This document shows, in pieces, positions 46,680-52,015 of a DNA stretch of 64,000 bases (within the stretch, counting starts at the first letter, position 1; every line of letters begins with the position of its first letter). Under the pieces are notes generated by a model. The model was given only the letters and a program-made list of their open reading frames with translations. It did not search any database and was not told where the DNA came from. The DNA lies in assembly GCA_019748195.1 (NCBI GenBank), contig JAIEPW010000005.1, positions 1 through 64,000 of the forward strand. The letters run 5' to 3'. This DNA is from Bryobacteraceae bacterium. GTDB taxonomy: Bacteria; Acidobacteriota; Terriglobia; Bryobacterales; Bryobacteraceae. The translations under genes and the position numbers were made by a program.

Positions 46680-46967
46680 CTACACCAACTCGATGCGCAG
46701 ATGACGGCCCACAGCATGTGCCGCGCGCGTTAGCGTTTGCAGCGTTACCGACGAGTTGCTTGGATCGAGAAGCCTGTCCAGAGCGGCCCGGCTGGTGTTC
46801 ATGCGCCGCGCCATCTCCACCTTGCTGATCTTTTCTTTCTTCATCGCTTGCTGGACCTGCCACGCCAGTGTCTCTTTCAGCGCGACGGCGCGGGTTTCTT
46901 CGAGGATGCCTTCCTCTTTCAGGAAGTCGTTCAGGGACGGGCCGATATGTTTGTTGGGCTTCTTCAT
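46680..46967 (-). CDS. Orphan HTH (XRE-type) antitoxin-like regulator
   Basis: A 95-aa DNA-binding protein. The start is fixed by an excellent GGAGGTGACGAA ribosome site directly before ATG 46967. An N-terminal helical part (LNDFLKEEGILEETRAVALK) precedes a helix-turn-helix, KKEKISKVEMARRMNTSRAA, then LDRLLDPSNSSVTLQTLTRA. This layout is that of HigA-like antitoxins usually found with a RelE/HigB-type toxin, but no toxin frame lies on either side. A weak promoter may sit at 47016-47044 (GTGACC, 17 bases, TTTATA on the minus strand). Confidence 0.82.
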   Translation of the reverse strand: MKKPNKHIGPSLNDFLKEEGILEETRAVALKETLAWQVQQAMKKEKISKVEMARRMNTSRAALDRLLDPSNSSVTLQTLTRAAHAVGRHLRIELV

Positions 46968-47101
46968 TTCGTCACCTCCTTGACTCGTGTGCCCCTTACG
47001 CCGCGGCCTCACGTGTATAAAACGGGGGAGTCGCGGACGGTCACCTTATTTAAGATTGCCCCGCATGCACGCAGGCGCAATTGTCAGGTGGCAAAGGTCA
47101 A

Positions 47102-48229
47102 TCATTCGAACGCGCCTTTCTCGCCGGCGGCGCGCTGGTTAAGCCGATAGCTCGTACTCCGCCCGCCTTCGGGATTTTGAACCAGGACCCCTCTGTCGAT
47201 CAAGGCGAGAATATCGCGATAGGCGGTGTCCTGTGAGCAATTGGCAAGCGTTGCGTACTTCGAGGTGGTGAGCTTGCCCTCGAATCCGTTTAACAAGCGA
47301 TTGATGACGTTCCGCTGACGTTCGTTCAGTTGGACGTTCTTGACGCGCTCCCAGAAGCGCGCCTTGTCGAGCACGACGCGGAGCGTGTGCTGCGCCCCAT
47401 CGATGGCACGCCCAAGGCAGCCAAGAAACCATTCCATCCAGGACGTGATGTCCATCGTCCCTCGTTGTGTCTGTTCCAGAATGTCGTAATAGGCGTTACG
47501 CTCCTGCCGTATCTGCGCCGACATGCTGTAGAACCGTTGTGGGCTGTTCTCCGATCGCGCCAGGGCGAGGTCGGCAATCGCGCGCGCGATACGACCGTTG
47601 CCGTCGTCGAAGGGGTGTATGGTCACGAACCAGAGATGCGCAAGCGCGGCTTTCATCACCGGATCGATCTGCTTGTGGCGCGCAAACCAGTCCAGGAAAG
47701 AGGTCATCTCGTCGGGAAGACGATCTGCATTCGGTGCTTCGTAATGAACGCGCTCTTTACCCATCGGGCCGGAGAGGACCATCATCGGCCCCGCGCTGTC
47801 GTCGCGCCAACCCCCGGTCTTGATTCTGGTCATGCCGCTACGGCCAGCGGGGAACAGCGACGCATGCCATGCGAATAGGCGGTCTGAAGTGAGAGGCTGA
47901 TTGAAGTTGCGGGTGGCGTCCAGCATCATCTCGACCACCCCTTCGACGTTCCGGTCGGCGGGCGTGAGGGCGCCGATGTCCATCCCCAAGCGCCGGGCGA
48001 TGGACGAACGGACCTGCCCGGCATCGAGATTTTCACCCTCGATCTCGCTGCTCTTGAGAACATCCGCCGTCAGCGTTTGCAGGTCGGCCTCCTGCCGCAA
48101 ATGGAAACCGAGCCCTTCCATGCGCCCGATCAGGCGGCCCTGCCGGTGACGCGCCGAAGCGAGAGGCTCCGCGATTCGCTTTGCACTCCAACGGAATCGG
48201 GGCCAATCCTTGAGCAGGTGGATATACAT
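47102..48229 (-). CDS. Fic-domain protein with N-terminal auto-inhibitory motif
   Basis: A 375-aa Fic protein, expected to transfer AMP (or another nucleotide part) to a target protein. The catalytic motif is HPFDDGNGRIAR with H205, D208/D209, N211 and R213, matching HxFx(D/E)GNGRxxR. The inhibitory helix motif SxxxEG is present upstream as S60-S-E-I-E64-G65, so it is a class II, self-inhibited Fic. A DUF4172-like N-terminal domain precedes it, and the C-terminal winged helix (about 310-365, KLTTSKYATLANCSQDTAYR) may bind DNA. Single-gene, next to antitoxin-like genes. Confidence 0.92.
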   Translation of the reverse strand: MYIHLLKDWPRFRWSAKRIAEPLASARHRQGRLIGRMEGLGFHLRQEADLQTLTADVLKSSEIEGENLDAGQVRSSIARRLGMDIGALTPADRNVEGVVEMMLDATRNFNQPLTSDRLFAWHASLFPAGRSGMTRIKTGGWRDDSAGPMMVLSGPMGKERVHYEAPNADRLPDEMTSFLDWFARHKQIDPVMKAALAHLWFVTIHPFDDGNGRIARAIADLALARSENSPQRFYSMSAQIRQERNAYYDILEQTQRGTMDITSWMEWFLGCLGRAIDGAQHTLRVVLDKARFWERVKNVQLNERQRNVINRLLNGFEGKLTTSKYATLANCSQDTAYRDILALIDRGVLVQNPEGGRSTSYRLNQRAAGEKGAFE

Positions 48230-48821: not shown

Positions 48822-50456
48822 TCACGGCGCTAAATGCGGCCGCAACTCGACAGTCCGGAACATTCGCGCGTCCAGCTTGACCTTCTCCGAATTCGCGATG
48901 TGATTCTGGATCAGCTCGAAGCTCTCCACTTCCTTGTCTGGCACCCCCACCAGAGCCAGCAGCCGGTAGTTGCCCGGCGGCACATTTGAGAAGCGGAAAC
49001 TGCCGCGCTCGTCCGTCCGACCAATTTCAATTCCGGCGAATCGCCCGCGCACCAAAGGGTCCGGCACCAGAAACACCCTCGCGCCCGGTACGGGACGGTC
49101 CTCCGGCGGCTGCTTCACCACGCCGCTTACCGCTGCCGCATCGCCCCTTAAGCGGACCGTCAGCACACCGGGACCCGCGACCTCGAACGGACCATTCGTC
49201 ACATCAAGTCCGTCGAACGTAGCACTCGCCAAGTGGTAGCCCGCGGGCCGGCCCACCCAACGAATGCGAAATCGCCCGCGGAACAAACGGACGGGACGGC
49301 AATCCGCCAAAGACAGATGGGCATCCCGCTCTTCGCCATACCAGCCGTTGCGATCCATCGGCTCGAAAACAATGATGCCCAATCCTTCCGGCGTGCGACT
49401 TCCCTCCTGAACCACCACACGCGTCTCCACCTGCAGCAGAGGCTCGAGCGCGAGAGCGGGAATCTCCACGTCGCGCTTGGTAACTTCTACAATCGCGTTC
49501 CCCAACCGGAACGGGCTGCCCGGATTTCGCACATAAGCGACGATCCGATATCGTCCGGGGCCAACCCCGCACAACGCGAACCGCTCCCCTACAGCGATCG
49601 ATCCGCCCCCCACGTTATTGCCGATCATGGGCCCGCCGAGCTCCCATACGCGTTCGAAATCAACCGATGCCATTCCCCCCGGCGGCGGAGCCGTTACCTC
49701 GCCGCGCACGCAGAAACGAGGTCCTTCCCGAACGCGCAGGTCGATACCCTCGCGATGTTCCGAGGCATTCAAATGCAAGGGAGCGGCATCGCGGAGTTCG
49801 CGGCCGGTGGGCCAGAAGGACGGCGCGAGCGGGCGCACCGCGGATGTTTCCGCGGGGGGCGCCGCCGCGGGCGCCAGGCGTTTGCGGTACTCACCGGTGC
49901 CCACGTAGTAAATCGCCTTGCCGAGGCCCTCGATCGTGTAGTTGCCGCCGGAATCCGTAGAGGCGTGGCCCTGGATCATGTACGCGGCCGAGCCGTTGGA
50001 GAACCAGCGGTCCCAGGCGAGCACGCGGAGATTCGGCACCGGCTTGCCCTCCTCGTCCACCACTCGCCCGGAGATTTTGGATTCCGGGGTGAGCACAAGC
50101 TCCATTACTGCGGGTTCGTCCCCCTTCCGGACGCGCACTTCCTTGCGCATTCCAAGGCCTGCGCGGCGGTAGCCCGGCTTGTTGGCGAGAATCGAGTAGC
50201 GGCCTTCTTCGGCCAGCGGGATCGCGAAGCTGCCATCTTCGGCGGTGGTGACGGAGGCGACCGGAGGCTCGAGGCCGAGGACGGCGGGACCTTGGGAGGG
50301 CAATTTTGTCGCAGTAACGTTCGCGCCGGAGACCGGTTTTTTCGAGACGGAATCCACCACGTGCCCGCGGATGGGGAACGCGGGGATAAATTGTGCTGCG
50401 AGAAACCCCGGACACGCGCAGATTGCCAGCACCCGCAGACACAACAACCGGATCAT
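48822..50456 (-). CDS. Exported carboxypeptidase-regulatory-like domain protein
   Basis: A 544-aa exported protein. Signal peptide (MIRLLCLRVLAICACPGFLA), then at least three CarboxypepD_reg/CNA-B-like beta-sandwich units: IRGHVVDSVSKKPVSGANVT (about 28-115), KISGRVVDEEGKPVPNLRVL (about 125-190), and a last unit with SGVVKQPPEDRPVPGARVFL and GSFRFSNVPPGNYRLLALVG. No catalytic domain is visible, so a binding or structural role at the cell surface is likely. ATG 50456 overlaps the TGA of the thioredoxin-rhodanese gene (ATGA), which decides the start and ties it to that operon. Its GC is nearer the genome norm than that of the genes upstream. Confidence 0.8.
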   Translation of the reverse strand: MIRLLCLRVLAICACPGFLAAQFIPAFPIRGHVVDSVSKKPVSGANVTATKLPSQGPAVLGLEPPVASVTTAEDGSFAIPLAEEGRYSILANKPGYRRAGLGMRKEVRVRKGDEPAVMELVLTPESKISGRVVDEEGKPVPNLRVLAWDRWFSNGSAAYMIQGHASTDSGGNYTIEGLGKAIYYVGTGEYRKRLAPAAAPPAETSAVRPLAPSFWPTGRELRDAAPLHLNASEHREGIDLRVREGPRFCVRGEVTAPPPGGMASVDFERVWELGGPMIGNNVGGGSIAVGERFALCGVGPGRYRIVAYVRNPGSPFRLGNAIVEVTKRDVEIPALALEPLLQVETRVVVQEGSRTPEGLGIIVFEPMDRNGWYGEERDAHLSLADCRPVRLFRGRFRIRWVGRPAGYHLASATFDGLDVTNGPFEVAGPGVLTVRLRGDAAAVSGVVKQPPEDRPVPGARVFLVPDPLVRGRFAGIEIGRTDERGSFRFSNVPPGNYRLLALVGVPDKEVESFELIQNHIANSEKVKLDARMFRTVELRPHLAP

Positions 50457-51325
50457 TGCGTTTTCTTCTCGCATGATTGAAATGTTGAGCCTGCCCCTAT
50501 GGTCGCCACCTCTAGTCCATGCGCCACCAGTTTGCCGGCCGCGCTCCCACAGAGGCTGCCCGGAATTCTTCTGCAGTCCACAAATTGGAGGGTCGTTCGG
50601 TCAAGTTCAGAGGCGGCGCGGAACGTAATCTCATCTAATGGCATAACGAGAGCCTGAGAAGTTTCATCCACATCCTCACGTTCTCGCGGATCGATCAAGT
50701 TCACTTTCTGAGACGCTCGAAGCTTCTGATACTCCTGCCAGGAATAATCTCGTACCGCACCCGGAAGCGAAACGGCCGCAGCCGCCACTACGCGCCCGTC
50801 CACGACCCACCGCCGAACCACTTCTTCGACATTTTCAGGAAGCCTCCCAACCCACAAGGCCGTCGTCTTGCCGTTGTGGTCGAGCGCAGCGAGCGTTGGG
50901 GTTGCGCCGGGTGACACACTGAGCCCGCCCCATTCTCTCACCACCCCCGCGTCAACTTCGAGAAGCTGCGAAACTTTAGCGATCTGTCCTGTAGTCGGTA
51001 CGAATACTTTGGTCGGCACTTTTGCAGCCTGCGCCAGCTTCACCAGCGTTCGATGAAACTCTGCACTCGCCATGCAATAACGGCAATCGATGGAAAAAAA
51101 GATCGCCAAAGTTCTCGGAGATGGTCCAACGTCATCTCTATTCGAGGCTAAGACGTTCGAGCCGACGGCGATCCGAGGCTTACTCGACTTCGCAATATCG
51201 ACTCGGTTTGGTGAGGGTCGCATGTAGGTTGTGATTCCAAGGACCACCAACGTCGCACATGCTACGATGACAGCTTCGCGACACACCACAAAAGACCACC
51301 TTCTTACTGCTGCGGTCAGTTTCAT
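50453..51325 (-). CDS. Membrane-anchored thioredoxin-like / rhodanese-like fusion
   Basis: A 290-aa protein with one N-terminal membrane helix (about 17-35) and two soluble domains probably facing the periplasm. Residues about 65-185 are thioredoxin-like: LAIFFSIDCRYCMASAEFH holds a C81-R-Y-C84 active site and ATPTL (P143) is the expected cis-Pro loop. Residues about 195-285 look like a rhodanese: KVNLIDPRERED, then FVDCRR with C251 at the catalytic-loop position and GLEVATIGAG at the end. Together this suggests thiol-disulfide or sulfur transfer outside the cytoplasm. ATG 51325 is preceded by GGGAGGCG. The domain order is one I do not recognise as a named family. Confidence 0.7.
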   Translation of the reverse strand: MKLTAAVRRWSFVVCREAVIVACATLVVLGITTYMRPSPNRVDIAKSSKPRIAVGSNVLASNRDDVGPSPRTLAIFFSIDCRYCMASAEFHRTLVKLAQAAKVPTKVFVPTTGQIAKVSQLLEVDAGVVREWGGLSVSPGATPTLAALDHNGKTTALWVGRLPENVEEVVRRWVVDGRVVAAAAVSLPGAVRDYSWQEYQKLRASQKVNLIDPREREDVDETSQALVMPLDEITFRAASELDRTTLQFVDCRRIPGSLCGSAAGKLVAHGLEVATIGAGSTFQSCEKKTQ

Positions 51326-51358
51326 TGGGCGCCTCCCATGGCGAGCTTACGATGGTAT

Positions 51359-51745
51359 TTACTTAACTAGATCTCTAACTTGTGGACCCAGTTGTCCCAT
51401 CTCGTATGACAAAAGCACTTTTCCCTTGTACGGTCGCGCTTCGCTATTTTCGATGCCGAGAGGCCGGAACCTCCAGGTTGTGATCATCGCTTTGGCTGAA
51501 TTCGAGATATAAATGTCTGGCGATTGCAAAATCTCAACAACACGAACTTCGCCGGAACTCCCGACTGTGATCCGCGCCACGAACGTGCCAACGACCTTCG
51601 CCGCCGCCGACTGTGACGGGTATTCTGGGAGAGGGCAGTTTATGCACTGCCCTCGGAACACTTTCGTCCCCACTCTCACAGTTGCGAGCTCAGAGATCGA
51701 TAGTTGAGCTAAGCTGAATGCGAGGCACATATAGCGGACGAGCAT
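51359..51745 (-). CDS. Small exported TonB-C-terminal-domain protein with CxxC
   Basis: A 128-aa exported protein, start fixed by GGGGGAGA 7-8 bases before ATG 51745. After a signal peptide (1-16) comes FRGQCINCPLPEYPSQSAAA, i.e. a C34xxC37 pair just before a TonB-C-like fold: VVGTFVARITVGSSGEVRVV, then AKAMITTWRFRP. Stand-alone TonB-C proteins of this kind are frequent in Acidobacteriota, but the CxxC ahead of the domain is unusual in my experience. It lacks the N-terminal helix and Pro-rich span of a real energy-transducing TonB, so it does not energise receptors. Base composition of 51361-51600 is 121 G+C of 240 by hand count (about 50%). Confidence 0.7.
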   Translation of the reverse strand: MLVRYMCLAFSLAQLSISELATVRVGTKVFRGQCINCPLPEYPSQSAAAKVVGTFVARITVGSSGEVRVVEILQSPDIYISNSAKAMITTWRFRPLGIENSEARPYKGKVLLSYEMGQLGPQVRDLVK

Positions 51746-51781
51746 ATAAAGTCTCCCCCTGCAACCCGGTTTCCTCCCAGC

Positions 51782-52015
51782 TCAGGGGCAGCTAGCCTCC
51801 CCGGAACACCGCTCACCGCAACTCTCAGCGGGCGAGCAACCATAGATGCCAGTCGATTGATTCTCGAGGCAGACACAAACGGTCCCTTCGCCGCCTGGGC
51901 AATCTATCTCGAGCTTCTGATCGCAGGCGGCGGGTCCTTCGTTCGTCAGAAGTAATGAAAAAGCCAGAACGGCCGCGGTGCGCACCGCAACTTGCAACAG
52001 CTTTTGTCTGTACAT
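51782..52015 (-). CDS. Secreted cysteine-rich peptide (77 aa)
   Basis: Start ATG 52015 with GAGAGGAA about 8 bases upstream. Residues 1 to about 30 are a classic Sec signal (MYRQKLLQVAVRTAAVLAFS then LLLTNEGPAA). The mature part of about 47 residues has eight Cys (31, 39, 47, 49, 60, 66, 70, 76), many Gly/Ser/Glu and no hydrophobic segment, so it should fold through up to four disulfides. No known family recognised; it is not a lipoprotein by lipobox. First gene of the cassette with the TonB-C-like, thioredoxin-rhodanese and regulatory-domain genes. Confidence 0.6.
   Translation of the reverse strand: MYRQKLLQVAVRTAAVLAFSLLLTNEGPAACDQKLEIDCPGGEGTVCVCLENQSTGIYGCSPAESCGERCSGEASCP

What the first reader, a model, noticed from the sequence alone, without database searches (positions are those of the whole stretch)
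48822..52015. Four-gene exported, cysteine-centred cassette in low-GC DNA: a possible undescribed periplasmic redox or sulfur-transfer system
In order: a secreted 8-Cys peptide, a secreted TonB-C-like protein with CxxC, a membrane-anchored thioredoxin (CxxC) plus rhodanese fusion, and an exported regulatory-domain protein. All four run leftward; gaps are 36 and 33 bases and the last pair overlaps by ATGA. Each of the first three has a clear ribosome site. The first three genes lie in DNA of about 50% GC where sampled, against about 63% in sampled neighbours, hinting at transfer. Inference: the thioredoxin-rhodanese protein reduces, oxidises or persulfidates the Cys-rich peptide and the CxxC protein outside the cytoplasm.
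Basis: partly seen in the sequence, partly recalled or inferred. Interest (0 to 1): 0.72.

Follow-up and report, generated by a model that had tools for sequence, protein, structure and literature searches.

The report
Dedicated folding cassette for cysteine-rich peptides
This soil bacterium carries a small set of neighbouring genes that most likely exports a tiny, cysteine-stapled protein together with its own custom helper for making the staples; the same set recurs in relatives and we did not find it described.

Summary
Genes, spacing and motifs are as described; core GC is about 55%, not 50%. The neighbourhood is conserved: 12 full-length thioredoxin-rhodanese proteins were found in 10 of 257 genomes of the order, two in this genome. 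All 12 lie near an exported Cys-rich peptide and a TonB_C-like gene; 10 of 12 have an adjacent CarboxypepD_reg gene. The 77-aa frame belongs to a real, divergent peptide family. In three other genomes of the phylum TonB_C and this rhodanese are one protein.

The sulfur-transfer idea is weakened. The usual C-x4-R rhodanese loop is replaced by C-x(6-8)-C in 19 of 20 relatives examined, and by none of seven other rhodanese matches in this genome. Peptides near such thioredoxins have an even number of cysteines in 49 of 53 cases, which points to disulfides. The thioredoxin motif is CxxC in 7 of 12, CxxS in 4, absent in 1.

Best reading: an exported disulfide-rich mini-protein with a dedicated, membrane-tethered thiol-disulfide folding helper. 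What the peptide does is unknown. Ten full-text searches of open-licence papers found no description.

The parts
51782..52015 (-). Exported Cys-rich peptide, 77 aa; signal-peptide-like N-terminus, mature part with 8 Cys (spacing 7-7-1-10-5-3-5)
   Evidence: frame conserved in two own-genome paralogues and in relatives; in 14 aligned peptides three Cys are invariant and two more are in at least 90%
51359..51745 (-). Exported TonB C-terminal-domain protein, 128 aa, CINC just before the domain; no Pro-rich linker
   Evidence: PF03544 E=3e-8; 11 of 12 cassette members hit TonB_C at E<=0.01
50453..51325 (-). Thioredoxin-rhodanese fusion with N-terminal hydrophobic anchor, 290 aa
   Evidence: 12 full-length sequences aligned; invariant P143, G160, P229, E232, R236, C251, C259, G270
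51074..51085 (-). Thioredoxin-type CRYC motif (residues 81-84)
   Evidence: CxxC in 7 of 12, CxxS in 4, absent in 1 (L057)
50501..50713 (-). Rhodanese-like domain (about residues 205-275) with C251-x7-C259 in place of C-x4-R
   Evidence: C-x(6-8)-C in 19 of 20 relatives examined; PDB rhodanese profile match E=1.3e-9; 10 of 19 segments hit PF00581
48822..50456 (-). Exported CarboxypepD_reg (transthyretin-like) repeat protein, 544 aa
   Evidence: PF13620 E=8e-30; homologue adjacent in 10 of 12 cassettes (8 same strand, 2 divergent)

Best explanation
A cassette that makes one small exported disulfide-rich protein and its dedicated folding helper. (1) The 77-aa product is exported, its signal peptide is removed near the first Cys, and the mature part forms disulfides (inferred; the even Cys counts support it). 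(2) The Trx-rhodanese protein, tethered by one N-terminal helix with both domains outside the cytoplasm (inferred from hydropathy), engages the peptide through the first Cys of its CxxC or CxxS and acts as oxidase, isomerase or monothiol holdase (inferred). (3) Its rhodanese domain has lost the sulfurtransferase loop and gained a second Cys (shown); C251 and C259 are likely a second thiol-disulfide or docking site (inferred). (4) The TonB_C protein is a partner of the rhodanese domain, probably an adaptor (inferred from fusions in three other genomes). (5) The CarboxypepD_reg protein is an exported beta-sandwich partner or scaffold of the finished peptide (inferred). What the peptide does is unknown.
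For: Cys peptide within 1.3 kb on the same strand for 33 of 47 anchors (11 of 12 full-length; the twelfth, L067, by eye) against 5 in 742 strand-kb of background; 49 of 77 anchors in the wider phylum set. Even Cys number in 49 of 53 peptides, binomial 3.5e-11. TonB_C-like gene near 12 of 12 (Pfam 11 of 12). CarboxypepD_reg homologue adjacent in 10 of 12 (the window's). Distances of peptide, TonB_C and fusion correlate (Mantel 0.68-0.77, p 2e-4). TonB_C-rhodanese fusions L026, L115, L116. Rhodanese C-x(6-8)-C in 19 of 20 examined and in 0 of 7 other rhodanese matches in this genome. Own genome: no DsbB or VKOR match, one DsbD.
Against: No biochemistry or expression data. The Trx motif is CxxS in 4 of 12 and absent in L057, so simple oxidase action cannot be general. 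In G114 (L025/L134) the rhodanese lacks both Cys although a Cys peptide and a TonB_C gene precede it. Fusions L115 and L116 have no Cys peptide in the 10.5 and 6.5 kb fetched. 28 of 77 anchors have no peptide found. Related sequences inflate both the Mantel and the parity figures, and parity was not compared with Cys-rich exported peptides far from any Trx gene. The AlphaFold model was too poor to use (pLDDT 34).
Confidence: 0.55

Rival explanations
1. Periplasmic sulfur-transfer or persulfidation system: the rhodanese domain carries a persulfide on C251 and hands it to peptide or TonB_C cysteines, with Trx reducing it.
For: Rhodanese-superfamily profile matches; catalytic-position Cys kept in 19 of 20 examined.
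Against: C-x4-R loop lost and a second Cys fixed 6-8 residues on; Cys parity suggests disulfides. No sulfur-metabolism gene was recognised among the neighbours scanned, but neighbours were not scanned completely.
Confidence: 0.12
2. Modified natural-product peptide: the Cys peptide is glycosylated, sulfated or otherwise modified and released; Trx-rhodanese and TonB_C are maturation or export parts.
For: Downstream of 5 of 12 cassettes lie glycosyltransferase or glycosyltransferase-like genes: L061 (Pfam GT4), L067 and L081 (Pfam GT domain in a gene 3.7 kb on, plus a protein of about 600 aa weakly like MftF in L081), L056 (similar to the L061 protein), L083 (only by similarity to the L067/L081 protein). 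Asn synthase and sulfotransferase lie near L064.
Against: None recognised among the neighbours of the window cassette that were scanned. None found beside L006, L057, L058, L059, L062 with these proteins as queries (not a Pfam scan of all neighbours). No background rate for glycosyltransferases was computed. Peptides carry a Sec-type signal rather than a recognisable RiPP leader (by eye).
Confidence: 0.15
3. Exported metal-binding (metallothionein-like) peptide with a Trx-like metallochaperone.
For: About 15% Cys, and CxxC near the mature N-terminus of several peptides.
Against: Even parity in 49 of 53, varied spacing, about 1% His.
Confidence: 0.08
4. Chance neighbourhood of unrelated exported genes in low-GC DNA.
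For: The window peptide and fusion have no relevant family matches by themselves.
Against: Recurs around 12 of 12 full-length fusions in 8 genera and in another family of the phylum.
Confidence: 0.02

Closest known systems
MauD and methylamine dehydrogenase small-subunit maturation (recalled; the search returned nothing)
   Same: Membrane-anchored Trx-like protein dedicated to one exported Cys-rich small protein encoded nearby
   Different: No such enzyme seen here; adds a rhodanese domain, TonB_C and CarboxypepD_reg partners
DsbC-type periplasmic isomerases (4fyb matched weakly, E=0.0074)
   Same: Exported Trx fold acting on disulfides (inferred here)
   Different: Tethered and peptide-linked, CxxS in 4 of 12; no DsbB match in this genome; DsbA was not searched for
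PspE and other single-domain rhodaneses (2jtq E=2.9e-5, Alr3790 3hix E=8.8e-8)
   Same: Rhodanese-superfamily sequence profile; PspE is periplasmic (recalled)
   Different: C-x7-C loop in place of C-x4-R; fused to Trx or to TonB_C
TonB C-terminal domain proteins (PF03544)
   Same: Window protein passes the Pfam cut-off; 11 of 12 members hit the model
   Different: Short, no Pro-rich linker, fused to rhodanese in relatives
Monothiol PDI such as AGR2 (title and start of abstract in a search listing; its CxxS is recalled)
   Same: Trx-fold partner of Cys-rich secreted proteins with CxxS
   Different: Eukaryotic, no rhodanese domain

Membership tests
Rhodanese superfamily (PF00581) | Sequence profile of the domain | tested here: met
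   PDB rhodanese 1.3e-9; 10 of 19 segments hit PF00581. The window segment alone does not.
Rhodanese superfamily (PF00581) | Catalytic Cys after the central strand | tested here: met
   19 of 20 examined; lost in G114 (L025/L134)
Rhodanese sulfurtransferase | C-x4-R (CxxGxR) active loop | tested here: not met
   C-x(6-8)-C instead; 5 of 7 rhodanese matches elsewhere in this genome have C-x4-R
Rhodanese sulfurtransferase | Sulfur-transfer activity | not testable with these tools
   Needs an assay
Thioredoxin-like oxidoreductase | Trx sequence profile and the conserved (cis-) proline | tested here: met
   5 of 14 hit Thioredoxin_2 (best 8e-6), not the window protein itself; P143 invariant in the 12 of A4
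Thioredoxin-like oxidoreductase | CxxC active site | tested here: inconclusive
   Present in the window (CRYC) and in 7 of 12; CxxS in 4; none in L057
TonB energy transducer | TonB C-terminal domain | tested here: met
TonB energy transducer | Pro-rich periplasm-spanning linker between anchor and domain | tested here: not met
   128 aa, domain match starts at residue 40, no Pro-rich stretch by eye
Dsb or VKOR oxidative system | DsbB or VKOR re-oxidase in the genome | tested here: not met
   no match at E<=1e-3 in a 99.67% complete genome; matched in 3 (VKOR) and 6 (DsbB) of 14 control genomes
RiPP gene cluster | Modifying enzyme beside the precursor | tested here: inconclusive
   None among the window neighbours scanned; glycosyltransferase or similar downstream in 5 of 12 cassettes, Asn synthase and sulfotransferase in one more
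Radical SAM-associated lipoprotein TIGR04134 | Score above the curated cut-off | tested here: inconclusive
   The CarboxypepD_reg protein scores 40.3 against 39.8 on residues 127-177 only; no radical SAM gene was looked for systematically
Known anti-phage defence system | Match to a PADLOC model | tested here: not met
   none of the four proteins matches at E<=0.01

The most novel reading that the evidence does not exclude
A new class of extracytoplasmic oxidative-folding machine: a rhodanese fold re-purposed as a C-x7-C dithiol relay, working with a tethered thioredoxin and a TonB_C adaptor, in a bacterium where no DsbB or VKOR was found, each copy dedicated to one exported disulfide-rich mini-protein of an undescribed family spread through Acidobacteriota.
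Probability: 0.25. Interest if true: 0.85.

Novelty: new variant of a known kind. Interest (0 to 1): 0.7.

Why it matters
It links an unclassified set of exported disulfide-rich mini-proteins, found in several families of the phylum, to a genetically dedicated thiol-disulfide helper, and shows a rhodanese domain whose active loop has been rebuilt around two cysteines and joined to Trx or TonB_C. This makes the folding route of such peptides testable in a bacterium where the usual DsbB or VKOR re-oxidase was not found, and may offer a genetic kit for making disulfide-rich peptides.

Tried and rejected
Rfam and tRNA scans of the window: nothing. Promoter and terminator scans: nothing above shuffles. 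No plasmid match for the fusion. Considered and rejected: that the rhodanese Cys are lost where the peptide is missing (in G114 the Cys are lost but a peptide is present); that the TonB_C CxxC is a conserved redox site; that the peptides are cationic antimicrobials (46 of 52 hand-trimmed peptides are net negative). The 14 cassette peptides share no Pfam family: each of five weak hits is to one member only (best E=0.0089).

Literature: ten searches, all of open-licence PMC papers, gave no description of this cassette. Of the papers listed I saw titles and starts of abstracts; in two Acidobacteria genome papers (PMC3174227, PMC5900883) I saw only term passages.

Not examined: the weaker rhodanese-only hits, except L115 and L116 (fusions) and L124 (an HTH-rhodanese with a C-x4-C loop, an ordinary protein outside this family, not counted). 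score only 9 and 6 candidates per genome, so copies may be missed.
Full report
OBSERVATION. The four genes, their strand, gaps (36, 33, ATGA overlap) and motifs are as reported. TonB_C (E=3e-8) and CarboxypepD_reg (E=8e-30) are direct Pfam matches; the peptide and the fusion match no relevant Pfam or NCBIfam model by themselves. The CarboxypepD_reg protein also just passes NCBIfam TIGR04134, a radical SAM-associated lipoprotein family, over 51 residues (40.3 against 39.8 bits). Core GC is 55.2% against 63.9% for the rest of the window.

PARALOGUES. The same genome (154 contigs, 99.67% complete) holds a second cassette in the same four-gene order on contig C126 (L006) and a reduced third on C124 (L007): peptide, rhodanese part only, CarboxypepD_reg, no TonB_C gene seen between them. 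The peptide of the reduced copy has five Cys, an odd number.

CONSERVATION. A profile of the 12 full-length fusions, searched over 257 genomes of the order, returns the same 12 in 10 genomes and 8 genera, then a sharp gap (E=3.2e-78, next 5.1e-30; only 9 candidates per genome are scored, so copies may be missed). Near the 12: a TonB_C-like gene in 12 (Pfam 11); a Cys peptide in 12 (11 by the automatic rule, L067 by eye); a CarboxypepD_reg homologue in 10, of which 8 directly downstream on the same strand and 2 (L057, L083) divergent; L056 and L064 have TIGR03435 proteins instead. Peptide, TonB_C, fusion follow in this order in 9; L056 and L064 place the peptide after the fusion, and L058 has two peptides, one on each side of the TonB_C gene. 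Distances of the three genes correlate, partly because some loci are close relatives.

BACKGROUND. By one fixed rule (signal-like start, at least 5 Cys and 8% Cys after it), 33 of 47 anchors have such a peptide within 1.3 kb on the same strand, against 5 in 742 strand-kb elsewhere in the same loci and the window; two of those 5 (L058, L081) lie in cassette loci and look real.

BEYOND THE ORDER. In a phylum sample of 396 genomes, 40 have a match at E<=1e-9, most to the Trx part. In G114, of another family, L134 shows peptide, TonB_C, fusion in the same order. L026 (G172), L115 (G348) and L116 (G203) are single proteins with TonB_C followed by the variant rhodanese, a sign that these two domains work together; only L026 has a Cys peptide nearby.

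PEPTIDES. In 14 aligned cassette peptides three Cys are invariant and two more are in at least 90%. The nine tested fit C-x(2-14)-C-x(2-14)-C-x(9-12)-C-x(5-9)-C-x(4-7)-C; the listed spacings of L058, L059 and L062 fit too, those of L007 and L083 do not. Near all anchors, 49 of 53 peptides have an even Cys count. The four odd ones are L007 (the reduced copy), L076, L077, and an L113 frame that overlaps the Trx gene and is probably spurious. Hand-trimmed, 50 of 52 are even (L077 and L085 not included there). Net charge is negative in 46 of 52.

FUSION PROTEIN. Profile matches to PDB and Pfam show both folds through relatives. The rhodanese loop is C-x7-C in 17, C-x8-C in L083 and C-x6-C in L116 (19 in A12); one further relative, in G114, has neither Cys. 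Of seven PF00581 matches in this genome, five have C-x4-R and none C-x(6-8)-C. The Trx motif is CxxC in 7 of 12, CxxS in 4, absent in L057.

MECHANISM. Shown: conserved linkage, exported-type sequences, Cys parity, loop change, domain fusion. Inferred: topology, disulfide state, direct action of the fusion on the peptide, adaptor role of TonB_C, role of the CarboxypepD_reg protein. No DsbB or VKOR match was found in this genome, but a DsbD was (DsbA was not searched), so the electron route is open. Glycosyltransferase or similar genes follow 5 of 12 cassettes, L083 on weak evidence, and Asn synthase and sulfotransferase genes lie near L064; further modification of the peptide in some species is possible.

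TRANSFER. Core GC is below the flanks in 14 of 14 loci, although by 0.2 points or less in L064 and L090, and GC3 of the fusion gene is below the median of 2-10 neighbouring genes in 12 of 12. The distribution is patchy (10 of 257 genomes) and a RAYT-like transposase gene (named from memory) lies near both other own-genome copies. This fits repeated transfer but does not prove it; the site without the cassette was not sought in relatives.

NOVELTY. Database scans gave single known domains only for the TonB_C, Trx, rhodanese and CarboxypepD_reg parts, no shared family for the peptides and no PADLOC match for the four proteins; no paper was found in the searches listed. It works like a dedicated disulfide-maturation helper. 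It is not filed as a sulfurtransferase or as a TonB energy transducer, since a defining feature of each was tested and not met.

Noticed in passing
L007:8616-9140: A 105-aa Trx-like frame followed by a 59-aa signal-like frame with 3 Cys after the signal, in this genome near a contig end.
   Followed up: no
L063, L068, L069, L071, L074, L075: Trx-only relatives directly followed by a conserved exported protein of about 244 aa; the L069 and L071 proteins have no NCBIfam match. A Cys peptide was found only near one L071 copy.
   Followed up: partly
L086, L123: Three exported peptides with spacing C-x4-C-x5-C-x3-C-x-C-x(6 or 10)-C, which recalls eukaryotic knottins (comparison from memory).
   Followed up: no
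window 46680-48229: Fic-domain protein (DUF4172; PADLOC SoFic 3.9e-44) and a small gene with a weak PADLOC match, downstream of the cassette.
   Followed up: no
L067:8029-9852, L081:1642-3447, L083:3083-4912: Proteins of about 600 aa related to each other, downstream of cassettes; the L067 and L081 ones have no Pfam match, the L081 one is weakly like the mycofactocin glycosyltransferase.
   Followed up: partly
L079, L099: Peptides with near-symmetric spacing C-x3-C-x10-C-x(11-12)-C-x10-C-x3-C, recalling helical hairpins (from memory).
   Followed up: no
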